A DNA stretch of 46,046 nt, taken from contig NZ_QTZO01000019.1 of NCBI RefSeq assembly GCF_004025585.1, forward strand, positions 1 through 46,046. The letters are read 5' to 3'. Origin of the DNA: Pseudodesulfovibrio sp. S3. GTDB lineage: Bacteria; Desulfobacterota; Desulfovibrionia; Desulfovibrionales; Desulfovibrionaceae. Under the pieces are notes generated by a model, which saw nothing but the letters and a program-made list of their open reading frames with translations, did no database searches and was not told where the DNA came from. A program made the position numbers and the translations under genes. Below, piece by piece: positions 25,677-43,874 of this stretch (positions within the stretch are counted from its first letter, which is position 1; each line of letters opens with the position of its first letter).

Positions 25677-27374
25677 TTATCCTTCGATCCGTTTGCCGAA
25701 GACGCGGACAACGCCCACCACCATCAGGCTGCCTGCCAACAGGGTTACCCACGCCGGGGCGCCAAGTCCGGCCGGGATGTATCCGGCGAGGATGGAGACC
25801 GCAGCCACTGTCAGCGAGTAGGCGAGCTGTGTGCGTACATGGTCGATGTGGTCGCAGCCGGCCCCCATGGAAGAGAGGATGGTGGTGTCTGAGATGGGGG
25901 AGCAGTGGTCGCCGAAGATGGCCCCGGTGAGCACGGCTCCGATGTTCAGGATCACGAAGTCCGGGTTCGGGTTGAGGGCGAAGGACAGGGGAATGGCCAG
26001 GGGCATGAGGATGCCCATGGTGCCGTATGAGGTTCCTGTTGCAAAGGAGATGACCGAACCGAGGATGAAGATGATGCTCGGCAGCAGGAAGGGAGGCAGT
26101 GAATCGGAAAGCACGCCCACGAGATAGAGCGCGGTGCCCAGGTCCTTCATGATGCCGGACAGGGACCAGGCCAGAAGCAGGATGACCGCCGTGATGTTCA
26201 TGGATTTCACGCCCGTGACAAAGGTCTCGATGGCCTCCTTGATGGGCATGATCTTTTTGATCACGGCCATGGCTATGGCCACCAGGCTGGCTACCAGGGC
26301 AGCCTGGAACAGCACCACGGAGGCGTCGGATGCTCCGAAGCAGATGCGCATGGAAGTGAAACTCAGGGGGGCTGCGTCGATGGAGGCAAGCTGGGCCGCG
26401 TCTTCGATTGCGCCGTAGCCGTTGAAGTAGAAACCCAGGAAGGCCGCCGCGATAAGGGTGCCGATGGGCAGGATGGCGCTCCAGACCGAGGGGATCACAT
26501 GGGGGGCGGGTACCAGGCTGGAGGTTTCGTCCGAAGACATGAGCGTGGCGCTGTCGGAAAACACCTTGCCCGAACGGGCGCGGTTCTCAGCGGCGCGCAT
26601 GGGGCCGAATTCGCGGAGAAACCAGATGGTGCACAGGATGAAAAGCAGGATGAAGATGTTGTAGAACCGGTAGGGAATGGTTTCCACGAAGACGCCGTAT
26701 GCATTGGCTTCCAGGCCGATCATCGTGTACCCGTCGCGGATCAGGCCCACCTCGTATGCCACCCAGGTGGATATCAGGGCGATGCCCGCGATGGGGGCAG
26801 CGGTGGCGTCGATGATGAAGGCCAGTTTTTCGCGGGAGACATGAAGCTTGTCGGTGACCGGTCGCATGATCGGTCCTACGGTCAGGGAGTTGGCGTAGTC
26901 GTCGAAGAAAATGAGCAGGCCCATGAACCAGGCGGAAAACTGTGAGGAGCGGGGTGTTTTGGCCCATTTGGCGATGGCTTCGGCAATGGCTTGGGCACCG
27001 CCCATCTTGGAGATGAGGGCTATGAGTCCGCCGATGGCCAGGACCTGGAGTACGATGCCGGCATTCCACGTATCCGCAAGGGAGGCCAGCAGTTGGCCGG
27101 ACAGGCTCAGGAAGCCGCCGATGATTGCATGATAGACATCCCATCCGTCCAGTTTGAGCATGAAGCAGCCGGAGAAAACCCCGATGAATAATGAAAGAAC
27201 AACGTTCTTGCTGACAAAGGCGAGGATGATGGCCAGAAGGGGCGGAATGAGTGTCAACAGGCCGAAAGCCTCGGCGTTGGCAACGCCCTGCGGTTGACCT
27301 GCGGCCAGAGCCGGACAGGCGAAGACGATGGAGATGAGAGTGACAATAACGGCGAACAGTACTCGAAGTCTCAT
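25677..27374 (-). CDS. NhaC-type Na+/H+ antiporter family protein
   Basis: Polytopic inner-membrane antiporter of 565 residues. An N-terminal stretch (about 1-25, ending PALAAGQ) looks like a cleavable signal peptide, followed by many membrane helices. Family signatures include FFDDYANSLTVGPIMRP (about 155-171), ATAAPIAGIALISTWVAYE (about 190-208) and GAIFGDHCSPISDTTILSS near 480-500. These match the NhaC superfamily (Na+/H+ or a related amino-acid/Na+ exchange). AAGGG lies before ATG 27374. It is monocistronic, between convergent GNAT and upstream cyclase genes. The transported ion is not certain. Confidence 0.88.
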   Translation of the reverse strand: MRLRVLFAVIVTLISIVFACPALAAGQPQGVANAEAFGLLTLIPPLLAIILAFVSKNVVLSLFIGVFSGCFMLKLDGWDVYHAIIGGFLSLSGQLLASLADTWNAGIVLQVLAIGGLIALISKMGGAQAIAEAIAKWAKTPRSSQFSAWFMGLLIFFDDYANSLTVGPIMRPVTDKLHVSREKLAFIIDATAAPIAGIALISTWVAYEVGLIRDGYTMIGLEANAYGVFVETIPYRFYNIFILLFILCTIWFLREFGPMRAAENRARSGKVFSDSATLMSSDETSSLVPAPHVIPSVWSAILPIGTLIAAAFLGFYFNGYGAIEDAAQLASIDAAPLSFTSMRICFGASDASVVLFQAALVASLVAIAMAVIKKIMPIKEAIETFVTGVKSMNITAVILLLAWSLSGIMKDLGTALYLVGVLSDSLPPFLLPSIIFILGSVISFATGTSYGTMGILMPLAIPLSFALNPNPDFVILNIGAVLTGAIFGDHCSPISDTTILSSMGAGCDHIDHVRTQLAYSLTVAAVSILAGYIPAGLGAPAWVTLLAGSLMVVGVVRVFGKRIEG

Positions 27375-27667: not shown

Positions 27668-30600
27668 CTATACCAGAGGGAACCGTTTGCATTGCGAGCC
27701 CTTGGGGACGAACAGGCTCATTTTCGGGGGGTCGGGAACGGGTTGATCAAGCTTGTGGGCCAGGAACTGGGAGGGACTGCGTTCGAGTATCTGGCCGGGC
27801 CGGAGGAACGTCCGGCAGAACATTTCGCCCCAGTTGGTTGTATAAAGTACGGCGGCCTGCTCTATCCGTTTGGAGTCCGGAGGGGCCGTCAGGTTGAAGA
27901 TGAAGAAGGCGCTGGTGACCCTTTCCGAATGCAGGCCTTCGTTGATGTCGCGTTCAAAGGTCTGCGCAAAGGGAAAGAACTCGTGGAGCGAGGTCATGAC
28001 CTTTTGCAGGTCGGCAACGGCAATGGGGGCAATGGAGCGGTCGGCCTGGAGCAGGCTTCGGGGTTGGTATATGCGGTTGGCCAGCAGCCAGGCCATCATG
28101 TGGACCGGATCAGGGTTGCGGTGCAGGAGTTGAAGCGCATCGGCCGACTGCTTCGCTTCCACGGCCGTGCCGCCCCGAACGGCCCAGATGGGTGGACTGC
28201 CCGGTTTTCTTTCTGCGGAGAAATGCAGGATGGGAAAGCCTGTGTCTTTGATGTCCATGAAGGGAACCCGCATGATCTTATGCTTTTTCTTGGCGAAGTT
28301 GGCACCGATGCGGCGGCCCATGCGGGTCAGGTCCTCGGCATTGATCATGGCTTTGGTTTTGCCCTTTTCGTTCAGCCCTTCCTGAATTCGCTGGTAGGTG
28401 TCCACCATGTATTGGCGGACCAGGGCCCCCATTCGCAGGGATTTTTCAAAGGGCCAGGACCTGTTGATCCTGGCGATGCGGTCCGGTTCGACATAGCCTG
28501 AGCCGAACAGGACCGAGATCAGGCTTTCGTCCTCGGGCCGCGTGGTCAGGTTCATGAAAAACGGGATGTCCGAAAGGTTGGCTTTGAGCCGGAAGGATTC
28601 CTTGAGCAGGGCTGATGCGTTGGTCTCGTTCCGCTCCTGGTAGTAGGCGTGCAGGATGGAGAAGAGCGCGGTGTAGGGATCCGTGTTCAGTTTGCCCTGT
28701 CGATTGCGCGTCAGGTTGCGCTTGATGCGGTCGCACAGGGGCAGAGTCGAGGTGTGGGGTGAGGCATATATTTCAAGCAGGCCGAGCTTGAGCACCGACT
28801 TGAAGGGCGAATGCACGGCCTTGACCATCTGCCAGAGCGATCCTCCGAAATATTCGGATGGTGGAACCGGCGCGAGATAGCCGAAGTCCTCCAGCCGCGG
28901 TTTTCCGCAGATGGGGTAGCGGCGGGAAGCGGAAATGCAGGCGTCATATATCTTGCAGCTGGCGCCCGCAGGGGTCACCCACCAGGCGATGTTTTTGCCC
29001 GCCAGCTTCAATGCGGTTCGGTAGAATTCCTCTTTCAGGAGCAAAGCCTGGGCCGACCCGGAACTTTCCTCGTCACCGGACAGGAAACGGTTGTCGCGGA
29101 CATCGTCCATGCGCATGGGGTAGAAGTGGACCTCCATGGCGAATTCGCTTTCCGCCCACAGGGCGATGGCGTCCAGCTTGCGCTTGAGATCGGCCTCCAT
29201 GGTCAGGGTTATATCGCTGTCGTAGCAGACCCAGCAATCGAGGTCCGACTTGGCGGTTTGGGCCACGGTGCCGAGGCTGCCCATGGAATATACTGCCAGA
29301 ATGCGGACATCCGGGGCGGTGTTTCTTGCCGGAAAATCGCCGAAGTGCTGCCTGGCGAGCTCCAGTGTCGTCAATTCGGGATAATATTCCCAGACCCGGC
29401 AGGTCGGCACCTGCCCGAAATTGAATTTGCGCTCGAAGGTGTCGGTGTCGAGCAACAGCGGCAGTATGCGCAGGAATACCTGCTGATCGCGGCTGATGGT
29501 GTTCATGGCCCGGTTCAGGCGCTGGCGGTTGTTTTCGAGCATCCGCCTTTCCCTCCGCATGAAGGTCAACTCCCTGGACCATGCATTCAAGGCTTTTTGG
29601 GTCAGGAAGGGGTCTGTTTCCTTGGTCTTGGGAATGCCGTTTTTTTCCACTTCCCTGGCGAACAGGGTCATTTGGCGGATGCGGTTGGCCAGGAACTGGG
29701 GATGACCGGCGTCGGAGTTCTTGATGATGGATCGGGTCACTGTTGTCCCCGGCATGTCGATGGAAGTGAAATTGCACTCCCGAATATACATCGCATGCAG
29801 AATGGAATCGATGAATTCCACCCCCTGAAAATCGTTGCCGATCAGCTCGGTGTACGTAAAGTCAGTGGTCCCGAACCTGGTCGCCCGCAGGGAGCACCTA
29901 TGAAAGCTTGATCCTGCCAGGGTGCAGGCGGCCACGTCCGTCATGTCCAGTTTGGTGTTCAGGAAGGCCGTATCGCCCATGCCGCAATTGCGGAATCGGC
30001 ACTCCTCGAAGGTGCAGTCGGTGAAGACCGTCCCCTTGAAGGAGCAGTCGTTGAATGAGCAACCGGCAAAGGTGGTCCTGGAAAATTCAGTGCCCGTGAA
30101 GTCCGTATTCTTGAATTCGGAGCTTGTCAGCAGGCAGAGTGAAAAAACGGTATCGTCGAGGGAGGTTCCGGCCACCTTGGTTCGGGTAAAGGTGGTCCGG
30201 GTGAATTCAGAGCCGGTCAGGGTCAGCCCTGTCAGTTCCCGTCCGTCCATTTCCGTGTCTTCCACACGAGAGGAGGGCAGTTTCATGTCTCGGAGGTTGT
30301 TGAATTTCGGGAGCAGTTCTTCGAGGGACTTGGGTCTGGATTTGAAGAGCCTTTTGAAAAATCCGGATTGCGCGGGATCGTCGGTGTTTTCCTTCTTGGG
30401 CCTGGATTTGATGGCCGTTGTAGCGTGGGATAGGGAAGCGGCCTGTTTGGACAGGCACTGCCGGGTGATGTTCCGGGTGAAATCAGGCGCTATGGCTTCC
30501 AGTACTCCCAGCATTTCCATGTGGATATCCAGCTGGGCGTCCTCCGGGAACGAAGCGATGTACTGCATGTGACCAATGTCGCCCAGGAGGGGCGCACGCG

Positions 30601-31501
30601 ATATGGCCGCGTTTTTCAGTCCCGGCATTTTGCCGCGTACGGATGCCAGCAGCTTTCCCGCACCGGGATGATCCTGTGCTATGATAGCCTCCAGACAGGC
30701 GCCGGCCAATCCATTGGCTGCATTGGACAAGGTCTTGAGCAGCATTCCCATGATGGTCTTGTTGCCTGCTTCGCCCAGGGCCGTGATGGTACGCAGGACA
30801 GTGACGTTCGGCACTATCTGATTCAGTTCCACTGCCTTGGCCAGGGCTTCCGCATAGTTGGCGTCGCCTATTCCCCGGATGATCCGGCAGAGTTGCTCAA
30901 GTTCGGGTCCACTGGTGCCGTTGGTAAGCCTGGCATTGATCCAGCGACCGAAAAGCCCGCCGACAATGATCTGTCTGACCGGGAAGGCCAGGGTTATGCC
31001 CTGCTCTCCCAATCGGGCCACGAACGGGGCCAGTTCTGCCGGGTCCGTGCCCATCAGTGGTTTGAGCAGATTTTCGAGCCAGTTCAGAATCTCCTTGTCG
31101 TTGTTGCCCGGATAGTTCAGGAGCATCTCGTGGGCCAGGGCCAGTCTGTCCTGGGCGGGCCAGGAGGCGACCTTGGCGGCCAGTTGGGGGATGGGCATTG
31201 TTTTCCCGGAAACGAAGCGGGAGCAGAGGGCACGGCCAAATCTGCCGGAACGGACAAGGGCCTGCAGACAGCTTTGCATGGTTTGAATATCGTTCGAATT
31301 GCCTGCAATGCGATAGAAGGTAAGCACAACTTCGGTCAGAGCGGTCGCATCGACTTGTCCGGGAGATGGTGTGGCATCGCACCATTGCATGAATTCGATT
31401 GCCAAATCGCCAATACCGGCCCCGTCTGTCATGCCGGGGTCGTTTATGCAATGATCCAATGCCTTGGAAATGATCCCTATGTTCGATTGTTTTTCGCCCA
31501 T
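27668..31501 (-). CDS. Class I adenylate cyclase with pentapeptide repeats
   Basis: Predicted to make cyclic AMP from ATP. The C-terminal half (about 600-1277) matches class I cyclases: YSMGSLGTVAQTAKSDLDCW near 735-755 carries the nucleotidyltransferase-like GS and DxD residues, and KPRLEDFGYLAPVPPSEYF and SVLKLGLLEIYASP follow. The first 400 residues are helical and repeat-like (LAPFVARLGEQG, ITALGEAGNKTI). Residues about 417-590 are pentapeptide repeats of the A(N/D)LxF style (FKNTDFTGTEFSRTTFAGCS and so on), expected to form a right-handed beta helix. At 1277 residues it is much longer than enterobacterial CyaA. There is no membrane segment. It is divergent from the acyl-CoA dehydrogenase gene. 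The repeat and helical parts may dock partners or sense a signal, which is inference. Confidence 0.88.
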   Translation of the reverse strand: MGEKQSNIGIISKALDHCINDPGMTDGAGIGDLAIEFMQWCDATPSPGQVDATALTEVVLTFYRIAGNSNDIQTMQSCLQALVRSGRFGRALCSRFVSGKTMPIPQLAAKVASWPAQDRLALAHEMLLNYPGNNDKEILNWLENLLKPLMGTDPAELAPFVARLGEQGITLAFPVRQIIVGGLFGRWINARLTNGTSGPELEQLCRIIRGIGDANYAEALAKAVELNQIVPNVTVLRTITALGEAGNKTIMGMLLKTLSNAANGLAGACLEAIIAQDHPGAGKLLASVRGKMPGLKNAAISRAPLLGDIGHMQYIASFPEDAQLDIHMEMLGVLEAIAPDFTRNITRQCLSKQAASLSHATTAIKSRPKKENTDDPAQSGFFKRLFKSRPKSLEELLPKFNNLRDMKLPSSRVEDTEMDGRELTGLTLTGSEFTRTTFTRTKVAGTSLDDTVFSLCLLTSSEFKNTDFTGTEFSRTTFAGCSFNDCSFKGTVFTDCTFEECRFRNCGMGDTAFLNTKLDMTDVAACTLAGSSFHRCSLRATRFGTTDFTYTELIGNDFQGVEFIDSILHAMYIRECNFTSIDMPGTTVTRSIIKNSDAGHPQFLANRIRQMTLFAREVEKNGIPKTKETDPFLTQKALNAWSRELTFMRRERRMLENNRQRLNRAMNTISRDQQVFLRILPLLLDTDTFERKFNFGQVPTCRVWEYYPELTTLELARQHFGDFPARNTAPDVRILAVYSMGSLGTVAQTAKSDLDCWVCYDSDITLTMEADLKRKLDAIALWAESEFAMEVHFYPMRMDDVRDNRFLSGDEESSGSAQALLLKEEFYRTALKLAGKNIAWWVTPAGASCKIYDACISASRRYPICGKPRLEDFGYLAPVPPSEYFGGSLWQMVKAVHSPFKSVLKLGLLEIYASPHTSTLPLCDRIKRNLTRNRQGKLNTDPYTALFSILHAYYQERNETNASALLKESFRLKANLSDIPFFMNLTTRPEDESLISVLFGSGYVEPDRIARINRSWPFEKSLRMGALVRQYMVDTYQRIQEGLNEKGKTKAMINAEDLTRMGRRIGANFAKKKHKIMRVPFMDIKDTGFPILHFSAERKPGSPPIWAVRGGTAVEAKQSADALQLLHRNPDPVHMMAWLLANRIYQPRSLLQADRSIAPIAVADLQKVMTSLHEFFPFAQTFERDINEGLHSERVTSAFFIFNLTAPPDSKRIEQAAVLYTTNWGEMFCRTFLRPGQILERSPSQFLAHKLDQPVPDPPKMSLFVPKGSQCKRFPLV

Positions 31502-42344: not shown

Positions 42345-42632
42345 TTAGCAACATCCTGTACTGACTTTCTTTTCTGTGAGCTTGTGGAGCCAGAGGGAGA
42401 TGATGTAGGAAGCGCAGCCCACGCCGGGTGTGACGGTGATGGCCGCTGTCGGACAGTTTTGGGCGCAGGCTCCGCACTCCATGCAGGCGTTGAAGTCGAC
42501 GACGTCCGCTTTCTTGTCCTGTGTTGTCAGTACGCGATGCGGACAGACCGTGACGCACAGCCCGCAGCCGATGCATTTCCCGGTATCAATTTTTAAGGTG
42601 GAGATGTCGTCAATATATCTGAATTCTTTCAT
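42345..42632 (-). CDS. hgcB: Ferredoxin HgcB of mercury methylation
   Basis: Ferredoxin of 95 residues that reduces the corrinoid of HgcA during mercury methylation. Two 4Fe-4S motifs are seen, CIGCGLCVTVC (Cys 20, 23, 26, 30) and CMECGACAQNC (Cys 50, 53, 56, 60). The extra Cys of HgcB are also present: Cys 73 in PGVGCASY and a terminal Cys94-Cys95 pair. These are established as important for HgcB function. GAGGAG lies about 7 bases before ATG 42632, which is 10 bases after the hgcA stop, so the pair is co-translated. An in-frame start at 42662 would overlap hgcA and is not preferred. Confidence 0.93.
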   Translation of the reverse strand: MKEFRYIDDISTLKIDTGKCIGCGLCVTVCPHRVLTTQDKKADVVDFNACMECGACAQNCPTAAITVTPGVGCASYIISLWLHKLTEKKVSTGCC

Positions 42633-42642
42633 GATTTTCTCC

Positions 42643-43833
42643 TCATCCTGCAAAAGGGGCAATCAACCAGCAGAGACTGCCGATGATTGCGGTTACGGCC
42701 TGGACCGGGATACCCCGGCGCATTTCCGCTTCCACGCCCGAAGGTGAGGTATACGGTGTCGAACCGGTGAAATTCATGGCCATGTACGAGGATATGGCCG
42801 TGGTCCAGAGAATGAGTGCGGTTGACTCCAGCCCGTCCAGTGAGCCGGAAAAGAGCAGGGCTGCGCATGTTCCGGCGAACACGCCGGTGAGCATGCCCTT
42901 TGGCCAGAATTGACGCCAGGGCAGCCGGTTCAGCAGAAGCGGCACCATCGCGCTTCCGGCCAGGATGCCGAAAGCCGTTCCGGTTGCTGCTGCCAGACCG
43001 CGGTGCCAGGCCCCTGCAAGCGAGAAGACGTCCGGTCCGATGCCGGACAGGACAAAGACCGCCAGCAGGGTCCAGGCCAGGGGCTTGCCAAGCAGAATGA
43101 TCTCCACCGGGATGAGTTCGGTCCGTTCCCTGAGGGAGAATGTGACCGTGCGCATGTCGTTGTCGGCGTTGTTGCCAGCCCTGAGGAAAGCGGGAATGTC
43201 CCCGGCGCGGATCGGACCCCAGATTACGTTGAATCCGCATCCTTTTTTCACCTTGCGGGCGGCCACGCCCGTGGCACCGAGTTGGGGCAGGATGAGTGTG
43301 CGGTGGGTGACTACCTCATGCAGCCGGGCAGCGGTGACGCTCAGGATGATTTCGTGGGTGGCGAACAGGTTCTTGCCCGCCGCACACCAGACATTGATGC
43401 CGCGTGTGTCGACCACCAGCAGCCATGCGTCGACGGCGGAAAGTTCGGTGCGGACCGCGTCAAAGGTCAGCTTGTAGTTGGCCGTGACCAGAACCGGCGA
43501 GTCCTGGGTCGGATTTCCTACACAGTAGAGTCCGGGCACGACCTTGTAGTTGTGCCGGGTGAGGCCCAACCTGGCCAGGACAGTGCCTGCCCTGTCGCTG
43601 GCGAGTGGTCTGGTGCGCACGCGGGGAACAAGGCCCGCAGGTGTGTCAATGAACCCGTCCACGTAAGGTTCAAGGGTGTACCCCGGTTTTTCGAAGACCC
43701 CTGCACGGGGGTCCGGCCTGGGGCCTCAACAGGGCGTGTCTTCCTGGGACGGGTCGGGCGGATACGCTGGGGCCATCATGTCGAGTGGTTCCAGTTCGAT
43801 CTTGGGAAGAAGTCTGTCGTCGGGTCCATTCAT
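42643..43833 (-). CDS. hgcA: Mercury-methylating corrinoid protein HgcA, predicted selenoprotein (in-frame UGA)
   Basis: Transfers a methyl group from its cobalamin to Hg(II), giving methylmercury. Length is 396 residues if the UGA at 43728-43726 (codon 36) is read as selenocysteine. ATG 43833 has AGGAG 6 bases upstream. The frame from it is in phase with the HgcA body, and the UGA follows a Cys codon (P-C-U-G-P). Past the UGA come the corrinoid-binding domain with the cap-helix motif NVWCAAGK (Cys150, lower axial cobalt ligand), LPQLGATGVAA, and a membrane domain of about five helices (about 250-396). No Shine-Dalgarno precedes the first later start (GTG 43662), which would also drop residues 1-57. 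A hairpin after the UGA fits a SECIS. HgcA relatives, as I recall, have Cys-Cys here. hgcB follows, rarD precedes by 41 bases. Confidence 0.92.
43695..43728 (-). promoter_or_regulatory. UGA codon and SECIS-like hairpin in hgcA
   Basis: On the - strand, UGA (43728-43726) is followed by 11 bases and then the stem GGACCCC (43714-43708), loop CGTGCA (43707-43702), and GGGGTCT (43701-43695). That is six Watson-Crick pairs plus one G-U. The loop begins 18 bases after the UGA and has G at its second position. Both fit the known bacterial SECIS rules (apical loop 16-37 bases away, a G among its first two bases). Confidence 0.72.
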
Positions 43834-43874
43834 GTGACGCTCCTGTGCGGATTCATGGGCCAGGCGGTCTTTGG

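What the first reader, a model, noticed from the sequence alone, without database searches (positions are those of the whole stretch)
42643..43833. HgcA appears to be a selenoprotein: in-frame UGA at codon 36
Seen: a frame with ATG 43833 and AGGAG 6 bases upstream is in phase with the HgcA body, is interrupted only by UGA at 43728-43726, and stays open for 360 more codons. The UGA follows a Cys codon in a P-C-U-G-P context. Known: HgcA N-termini, as I recall them, carry a Cys-Cys near this place, and Cys-to-Sec exchange is the usual pattern in selenoproteins. Sec binds Hg(II) very tightly, so a Cys-Sec pair could affect delivery of the metal to the corrinoid. I know of no established Sec-HgcA. 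Gene callers would drop the first 57 residues or call a pseudogene.
Basis: partly seen in the sequence, partly recalled or inferred. Interest (0 to 1): 0.95.

Follow-up and report, generated by a model that had tools for sequence, protein, structure and literature searches.

The report
Selenocysteine form of mercury-methylating HgcA
The gene for the mercury-methylating protein HgcA has an in-frame UGA codon exactly where many relatives encode a cysteine, and it is predicted to be read as selenocysteine, which would give the protein a mercury-loving Cys-Sec pair that ordinary gene models leave out; selenocysteine forms of HgcA were already predicted in print.

Summary
The frame from ATG 43833 (AGGAG six bases upstream) is in phase with HgcA, is broken once, by UGA 43728-43726 in P-C-U-G-P, and runs 360 codons on. 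In this genus 20 of 20 readable hgcA loci have UGA at this site (19 C-U-G, 1 C-U-D). Of 257 distinct loci examined, 103 read C-U-G, 66 read C-C-G and 27 carry another N-terminal UGA form. A SECIS-like hairpin follows the UGA in 92 of 103 C-U-G genes (codon-shuffle mean 25.2, maximum 39) but not beyond chance in C-C-G genes, and its stem changes by compensatory pairs. The genome has selA, selB, tRNA-Sec and a SelD that is itself a UGA gene. So selenocysteine is the best reading. As a kind it is not new: Haft & Gwadz 2023 is cited for Sec-HgcA, and a 2026 review lists it with motif CU. What is added: in Desulfovibrionales Sec is the rule (63 of 77 loci), and published residue numbers imply that the reference HgcA of strain ND132 starts 22 residues after the Sec position, so the enzyme studied at the bench probably lacks it. 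The Cys-Sec pair lies in a predicted disordered tail; a role in Hg(II) handling is inferred and untested.

The parts
42643..43833 (-). hgcA, full frame of 396 residues with UGA at codon 36; its own stop is also UGA (42645-42643)
   Evidence: NF040863 428.6 bits over cut-off 275
43840..43844 (-). AGGAG, likely ribosome-binding site of the long form, six bases before ATG 43833
   Evidence: read
43726..43728 (-). in-frame UGA, codon 36, predicted selenocysteine, after Cys35
   Evidence: aligned with the second Cys of CCG in homologues
43696..43713 (-). SECIS-like hairpin, 6 pairs (nt 13-18 with 25-30 after the UGA), apical loop CGUGCA beginning 19 nt after the UGA
   Evidence: (window: 6 Watson-Crick pairs plus one G-U, loop at 19)
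43660..43662 (-). GTG codon 58, the start that a standard gene caller would take; equals residue 1 of the published ND132 numbering by offset
   Evidence: offset 57 from Thr60, Thr66, Val91, Cys93 in PMC7305189
43684..43833 (-). codons 1-50: N-terminal arm with the Cys-Sec pair, predicted mostly disordered (block means 28-47)
   Evidence: AlphaFold2 model
42345..42632 (-). hgcB ferredoxin, ATG 42632, with Cys (not Sec) in GVGC and Cys-Cys at the C-terminus
   Evidence: NF040864 125 bits over cut-off 99

Best explanation
The in-frame UGA at codon 36 of this hgcA is predicted to be read as selenocysteine, giving HgcA a likely mobile N-terminal arm whose Cys-Sec pair would bind Hg(II) and help to pass it to the methyl-corrinoid site or to take product off it. 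Shown by sequence: the UGA replaces the second Cys of a CC-G motif found in many homologues; a hairpin with compensatory changes follows it; the genome has the selenocysteine machinery; every readable hgcA locus of the held genus members has UGA there. Inferred: SelB recognises that hairpin and Sec-tRNA decodes the UGA, while the UGA at the end of the same gene stops translation. Inferred and weaker: because vicinal thiols bind Hg(II) and a selenol binds it more tightly, and because HgcB carries a comparable Cys-Cys on its own tail, the arm works as a soft-metal ligand rather than as part of the corrinoid fold. I put about 0.95 on the recoding and about 0.45 on the Hg(II) arm; the number below is for the statement as a whole.
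For: Recoding: 20 of 20 readable genus loci have UGA here (22 loci in 22 of 36 genomes; 1 cut by a contig end, 1 pseudogene). 103 of 257 loci C-U-G. Hairpin of 5 or more pairs in the expected place: 92 of 103 C-U-G genes against a codon-shuffle mean of 25.2 and maximum of 39 in 200 shuffles; 10 of 69 genes then classed C-C-G against 7.4, maximum 16. Stem 13-18/25-30: 459 of 612 cells paired (75.0%) in 102 distinct C-U-G sequences, 152 of 414 (36.7%) in 69 C-C-G sequences; each of the six pairs has changes on both sides. selA 606 bits, selB 395 bits, selD 330 bits, tRNA-Sec with anticodon tca; SelD in this genome has UGA in AAGUAAK. 3 of 103 C-U-G genes have no ATG/GTG/TTG between the UGA and the conserved PG (residues 100-101), and 15 of 103 have a downstream start with an SD-like 4-mer, so an internal start seldom offers a way round. 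Arm: residues 1-39 have pLDDT under 50. HgcB Cys94/Cys95 are needed for full activity and likened to metal-trafficking Cys pairs in PMC7305189 (passages).
Against: No protein or selenium data. SelB hardly separates the groups: 77 of 80 C-U-G genomes (80 of 102 handles given) and 59 of 69 C-C-G genomes have it (60 of 61 and 23 of 25 among those rated at least 90% complete), because most of these lineages have the machinery anyway; one C-U-G genome rated 96% complete (G052) showed none. 11 of 103 C-U-G genes miss the 5-pair hairpin rule. On the tree only 4 independent Sec/Cys contrasts lie on starred branches (median p 0.125). Against the Hg(II)-arm step: 35 of 257 loci have neither CC nor CU by my patterns, and recombinant ND132 HgcA, which by its numbering lacks the arm, gave methylmercury in E. 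coli lysates (PMC11588087, passages), so the arm is not essential for catalysis.
Confidence: 0.62

Rival explanations
1. The UGA is an ordinary stop. HgcA is made from an internal start (GTG 43662), and the upstream codons are a leader peptide or the remains of one.
For: The short form is what published work on ND132 describes, and it is active (numbering). A GTG 22 codons after the UGA is present in 12 of 19 C-U-G genus members.
Against: The upstream peptide is alike in frame on both sides of the UGA across many loci. No SD-like 4-mer precedes GTG 43662, and only 15 of 103 C-U-G genes have a downstream start with one; 3 of 103 have no start codon before the conserved PG. The hairpin with covariation is not explained.
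Confidence: 0.04
2. The UGA is a selenium-dependent switch: with selenium the long Cys-Sec form is made, without it translation ends at codon 36 and less HgcA, or only a short form, is made.
For: Same hairpin and machinery evidence; a possible internal start exists in this window.
Against: Nothing here shows regulation; SD-like signals are missing at most internal starts.
Confidence: 0.12
3. Sec is inserted, but the Cys-Sec pair serves redox chemistry (a selenenylsulfide that protects or reduces the Co(I)/Fe-S centres) or binds another substrate, not Hg(II).
For: Cys-Sec pairs are redox motifs in other selenoproteins (recalled). Why microbes methylate Hg is unknown, and it is generally not thought to be a detoxification (PMC7305189, passage).
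Against: Another Cys pair of the system, at the HgcB C-terminus, matters for Hg methylation. Not tested here either way.
Confidence: 0.3
4. Sequencing error or pseudogene.
For: One genus member, G022 (L122), does have a broken hgcA.
Against: UGA at the same site in 103 of 257 distinct loci, intact body and adjacent hgcB in the window.
Confidence: 0.01

Closest known systems
Selenoprotein forms of HgcA (Haft & Gwadz 2023, doi 10.1128/jb.00259-22; review PMC13188914 lists NF040863, motif CU, WP_250697417.1)
   Same: Same family model and same CU motif.
   Different: Only passages of the review (table, reference list, method remark) and the citation in PMC11588087 were seen; the 2023 paper is not held, so which organisms it names, and whether it names Pseudodesulfovibrio or ND132, is not known to me.
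HgcA of Pseudodesulfovibrio mercurii ND132 (UniProt F0JBF0 as named in PMC7305189)
   Same: Same genus; residues map with a constant offset of 57 (Thr60, Thr66, Val91, Cys93 to T117, T123, V148, C150).
   Different: The published protein begins where codon 58 lies here, after the Sec codon.
Cys-Cys HgcA (for example P0031, P0049, P0051)
   Same: Same arm with CCG and KPGY after it; 53-60% identity for the three.
   Different: Cys in place of Sec; C-C-G genes as a class show no hairpin beyond chance.
Selenoprotein form of HgcB (GVGU, WP_250697400.1 in PMC13188914)
   Same: Partner protein with a Sec at a Cys essential in ND132 HgcB.
   Different: HgcB in the window has Cys there (GVGC). GVGU was seen in 1 of 244 HgcB regions (L097).

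Membership tests
HgcA, mercury methylation corrinoid protein (NF040863) | score over the curated cut-off | tested here: met
   428.6 bits against 275
HgcA, mercury methylation corrinoid protein (NF040863) | cap-helix Cys (motif N(V/I)WC(A/S)AGK recalled; the Cys itself in PMC7305189) | tested here: met
   GINVWCAAGK, C150, invariant in A1 and A2
HgcA, mercury methylation corrinoid protein (NF040863) | corrinoid-binding domain plus a C-terminal membrane domain of five helices | tested here: met
   CFeSP large/gamma subunit chains matched at residues 97-220; five long helices in 249-395 of the model
HgcA, mercury methylation corrinoid protein (NF040863) | hgcB directly downstream | tested here: met
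   NF040864 125 bits over cut-off 99, 42345-42632
HgcA, mercury methylation corrinoid protein (NF040863) | Hg(II) methylation by the organism | not testable with these tools
   needs culture
Bacterial selenoprotein | in-frame UGA aligned with Cys in homologues | tested here: met
Bacterial selenoprotein | SECIS hairpin just after the UGA, apical loop with an early G (bacterial SECIS rule recalled, not from a call) | tested here: met
   window: 6 Watson-Crick pairs, loop CGUGCA at 19 nt; covariation
Bacterial selenoprotein | selA, selB, selC, selD in the genome | tested here: met
Bacterial selenoprotein | selenium in the protein | not testable with these tools
   needs mass spectrometry or 75Se

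The most novel reading that the evidence does not exclude
In sulfate reducers of the ND132 kind HgcA is by rule a selenoprotein, so the reference enzyme used in structural and biochemical work is a truncated gene model without its Cys-Sec arm; the arm loads Hg(II) (or releases methylmercury), and selenium supply therefore bears on methylmercury formation.
Probability: 0.35. Interest if true: 0.8.

Novelty: new member of a known kind. Interest (0 to 1): 0.5.

Why it matters
HgcA makes methylmercury, a major environmental neurotoxin. If Sec is the normal state in Desulfovibrionales, standard gene models, the 325-position family model (which starts at residue 69 here), and by its numbering the ND132 construct all omit the part with what would be the strongest Hg(II) ligand. 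That bears on how Hg(II) reaches the enzyme, and on the old question of how selenium and mercury interact in sediments. It can be tested at once by reading the DNA upstream of ND132 hgcA.

Tried and rejected
Considered and rejected: sequencing error and pseudogene (recurrence); UGA as a sense codon genome-wide (the gene's own stop is UGA). SelB presence as a discriminating test failed: it is common in both groups. A register-fixed helix understates the hairpin, because one subgroup has it a few bases later (ELPPEAAGE subgroup); hence the looser rule. That rule (stem of 5 or more, loop beginning 15-29 nt after the UGA, G in the first two loop bases) was written after the first sequences had been seen and rests on a recalled SECIS model. 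Independent Sec/Cys contrasts on the tree are too few for a significant test. Rfam has no match at the gathering score in the window. GenBank names for three genus members rest on equal contig lengths (P. cashew G004, P. indicus G006, P. sediminis G016). The name of genus and order rests on identity of unnamed loci with named ones (L104 with L024, L114 with L022) and on the taxonomy.

Left out of counts: 12 duplicate loci. Of the 76 over-cut-off hits in the order one partial (G077) was not fetched, and two sub-cut-off ones (G022, broken; G066, in two pieces) were added, so 77; G066 (L179) counts as C-U-G. Of the 82 remaining phylum hits listed, 80 were fetched (G495 and G428 left out). Three short proteins were dropped from the tree. 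Three rows first classed C-C-G (L136, L146, L261) were moved to the other-Sec class because a CUP motif lies in the same arm; still count them as C-C-G. L258 (GUG) was left in C-C-G. The 27 Sec-other rows were taken from the pattern hits; 2 of them (L234, L219) have 4 Watson-Crick pairs plus one G-U and one (L259) has 3 pairs. My patterns are not complete: of the 35 rows called neither, at least five (L198, L212, L239, L256, L273) have a UGA at about this place without a matched motif, so the Sec count may be low and the neither count high.

Full report
What is there. On the minus strand, hgcA runs from ATG 43833 to the stop at 42643, with hgcB ten bases further on (42632-42345). One UGA, codon 36, interrupts the frame, in TPC-U-GPRP; the terminal stop of the same gene is also UGA. 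Under the standard code the gene would be called from GTG 43662, losing 57 residues. The body is HgcA by the curated model (428.6 bits, cut-off 275) with cap-helix Cys150.

Homologues. Of 7690 proteins matched, the best 120 were listed. The first 29 of these are 311-343 residues long and begin after this point; four of the short ones are named Pseudodesulfovibrio. In all, 43 of the 120 are 299-343 long, and 77 are 372-411 long; all 77 have CCG in their first 60 residues, where this gene has C-U-G. That is the signature of gene callers cutting a selenoprotein. To see the DNA I collected hgcA loci from 80 named contigs (the best 80 of 448), the 348 genomes that the order search covered and a sample of 395 genomes of the phylum, and read upstream in frame. 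Of 257 distinct loci, 103 have C-U-G, 66 C-C-G, 27 another N-terminal UGA form (21 C-U-P, 3 U-C, and one each of C-U-D, C-U-A and G-U-G), 22 other CC, 35 neither, and 4 cannot be judged (2 cut, 1 masked, 1 pseudogene). In this genus 22 loci were found in 36 genomes, 14 of which have none: 19 C-U-G, 1 C-U-D, 1 cut by a contig end, 1 pseudogene. In the order 63 of 77 loci are Sec by this reading, 8 C-C-G, 2 other CC, 2 neither, 1 cut, 1 pseudogene. Named C-U-G examples include P. pelocollis SB368, Desulfofustis glycolicus DSM 9705, Desulfogranum japonicum DSM 18378 and Desulfoprunum benzoelyticum DSM 28570.

The RNA signal. In the window the UGA is followed by GACCCC-CGUGCA-GGGGUC, loop start 19 nt after the UGA. 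In 102 distinct C-U-G sequences the six-pair stem is formed in 459 of 612 cells, in 69 C-C-G sequences in 152 of 414; sliding the partner by 1-3 bases lowers the former to 35-61%. All six pairs show changes on both sides. When 3' halves are dealt out anew among the C-U-G sequences, pairing falls to 64.0% (sd 1.1, maximum 68.1 in 1000). With a register-free rule, 92 of 103 C-U-G genes have the hairpin against 25.2 on average and 39 at most when codons are shuffled within amino acids; C-C-G genes do not exceed their shuffles (10 of 69 against 7.4, maximum 16). Folding energies agree: mean z -0.84 against -0.03. The C-U-P form has the hairpin in 19 of 21 cases against a mean of 3.1 and a maximum of 8. 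The RNA seems to leave a mark on the protein: PRAG or PRSG follows within 14 residues in 44 of 103 C-U-G genes and 3 of 66 C-C-G genes, PPSS or PQSS in 0 of 103 and 11 of 66; related sequences are counted singly there, so this is description, not a test.

Machinery. The genome has one selA and one full selB on the same contig about 3 kb apart, tRNA-Sec with anticodon tca, and selD with its own UGA in AAGUAAK. SelB is present in 77 of 80 C-U-G genomes tested (80 of 102 handles given), but also in 59 of 69 C-C-G genomes, so its presence is needed for the reading but does not tell the groups apart. Without Sec, 3 of 103 C-U-G genes would have no start codon before the conserved PG, and 15 of 103 have a downstream start with an SD-like 4-mer.

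History. On a FastTree of 169 HgcA bodies, the window lies in an all-Sec set of 52 rows (support 98); Sec and Cys need at least 11 changes on that tree, of which starred branches force 4, against 53 for shuffled labels. Sec is thus shared by a large clade and was exchanged with Cys several times; direction is not inferred. Independent contrasts are too few for a test.

The reference enzyme. PMC7305189 (passages) numbers ND132 HgcA with Thr60, Thr66, Val91 and Cys93; the same residues here are T117, T123, V148 and C150, a constant offset of 57. So the ND132 gene model begins at our codon 58, and the proteins called full-length in PMC7305189 and PMC11588087 (passages) should lack the arm. ND132 is now Pseudodesulfovibrio mercurii (PMC11588087). 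Since 20 of 20 readable genus loci are Sec, ND132 very likely is too; its upstream DNA was not seen. Searches for HgcA or ND132 with selenocysteine or selenoprotein listed 3, 4 and 2 papers; in the three that I opened for passages (PMC13188914, PMC11588087, PMC4287179) I saw no statement about Sec in ND132 HgcA, and the other listed papers were seen as listings only. The 2023 paper itself is not held and may contain one.

How it may work. The AlphaFold2 model of the window protein (56 sequences, mean pLDDT 79.2) has residues 1-39 under pLDDT 50 and ordered structure from about residue 58: a flexible arm that carries the Cys-Sec pair in front of the corrinoid domain. HgcB has a Cys-Cys tail; changing both cut activity by 95%, and such pairs are compared with metal-trafficking ones (PMC7305189). 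My reading is that the arm is a second Hg(II) ligand, with Sec for tighter binding or faster exchange. This is inference. Against a strict need: the short ND132 form was active in lysates, and 35 of 257 loci have neither CC nor CU by my patterns, though at least five of these have a UGA near the place.

Novelty. [quoted passage not shown] This locus is therefore a new, well-supported member.

Noticed in passing
L097 (JABHLN010000103.1), hgcB region: HgcB with GVGU, a predicted Sec at the essential Cys73 position, the only one seen in 244 HgcB regions; its HgcA has neither CC nor CU at the usual place.
   Followed up: partly
L131, L136, L138, L143, L146, L149 (one genus, g23, of the same family): HgcA arms with C-U-P-P close to a possible start and far upstream of the usual site, each followed by a hairpin of 5-6 Watson-Crick pairs: a displaced Sec motif.
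   Followed up: partly
L214, L219, L226: HgcA arms with the order reversed (U-C instead of C-U), each with a hairpin after the UGA (4-8 Watson-Crick pairs). L256 looks alike but my patterns missed it.
   Followed up: no
L122 / L178 (G022:C3): A broken hgcA in a member of the same genus, with only two pieces matching the family and a degraded hgcB-like stretch nearby.
   Followed up: no
window 27668-31501, minus strand: A 1277-residue protein whose C-terminal half resembles class I adenylate cyclase (367.6 bits, below the curated cut-off) and which has over 600 residues before it.
   Followed up: no
window 25677-27374, minus strand: A transporter related to the Tet(35)/NhaC antiporter group (183 bits, far below the cut-off of 750), so probably an ordinary antiporter.
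   Followed up: no
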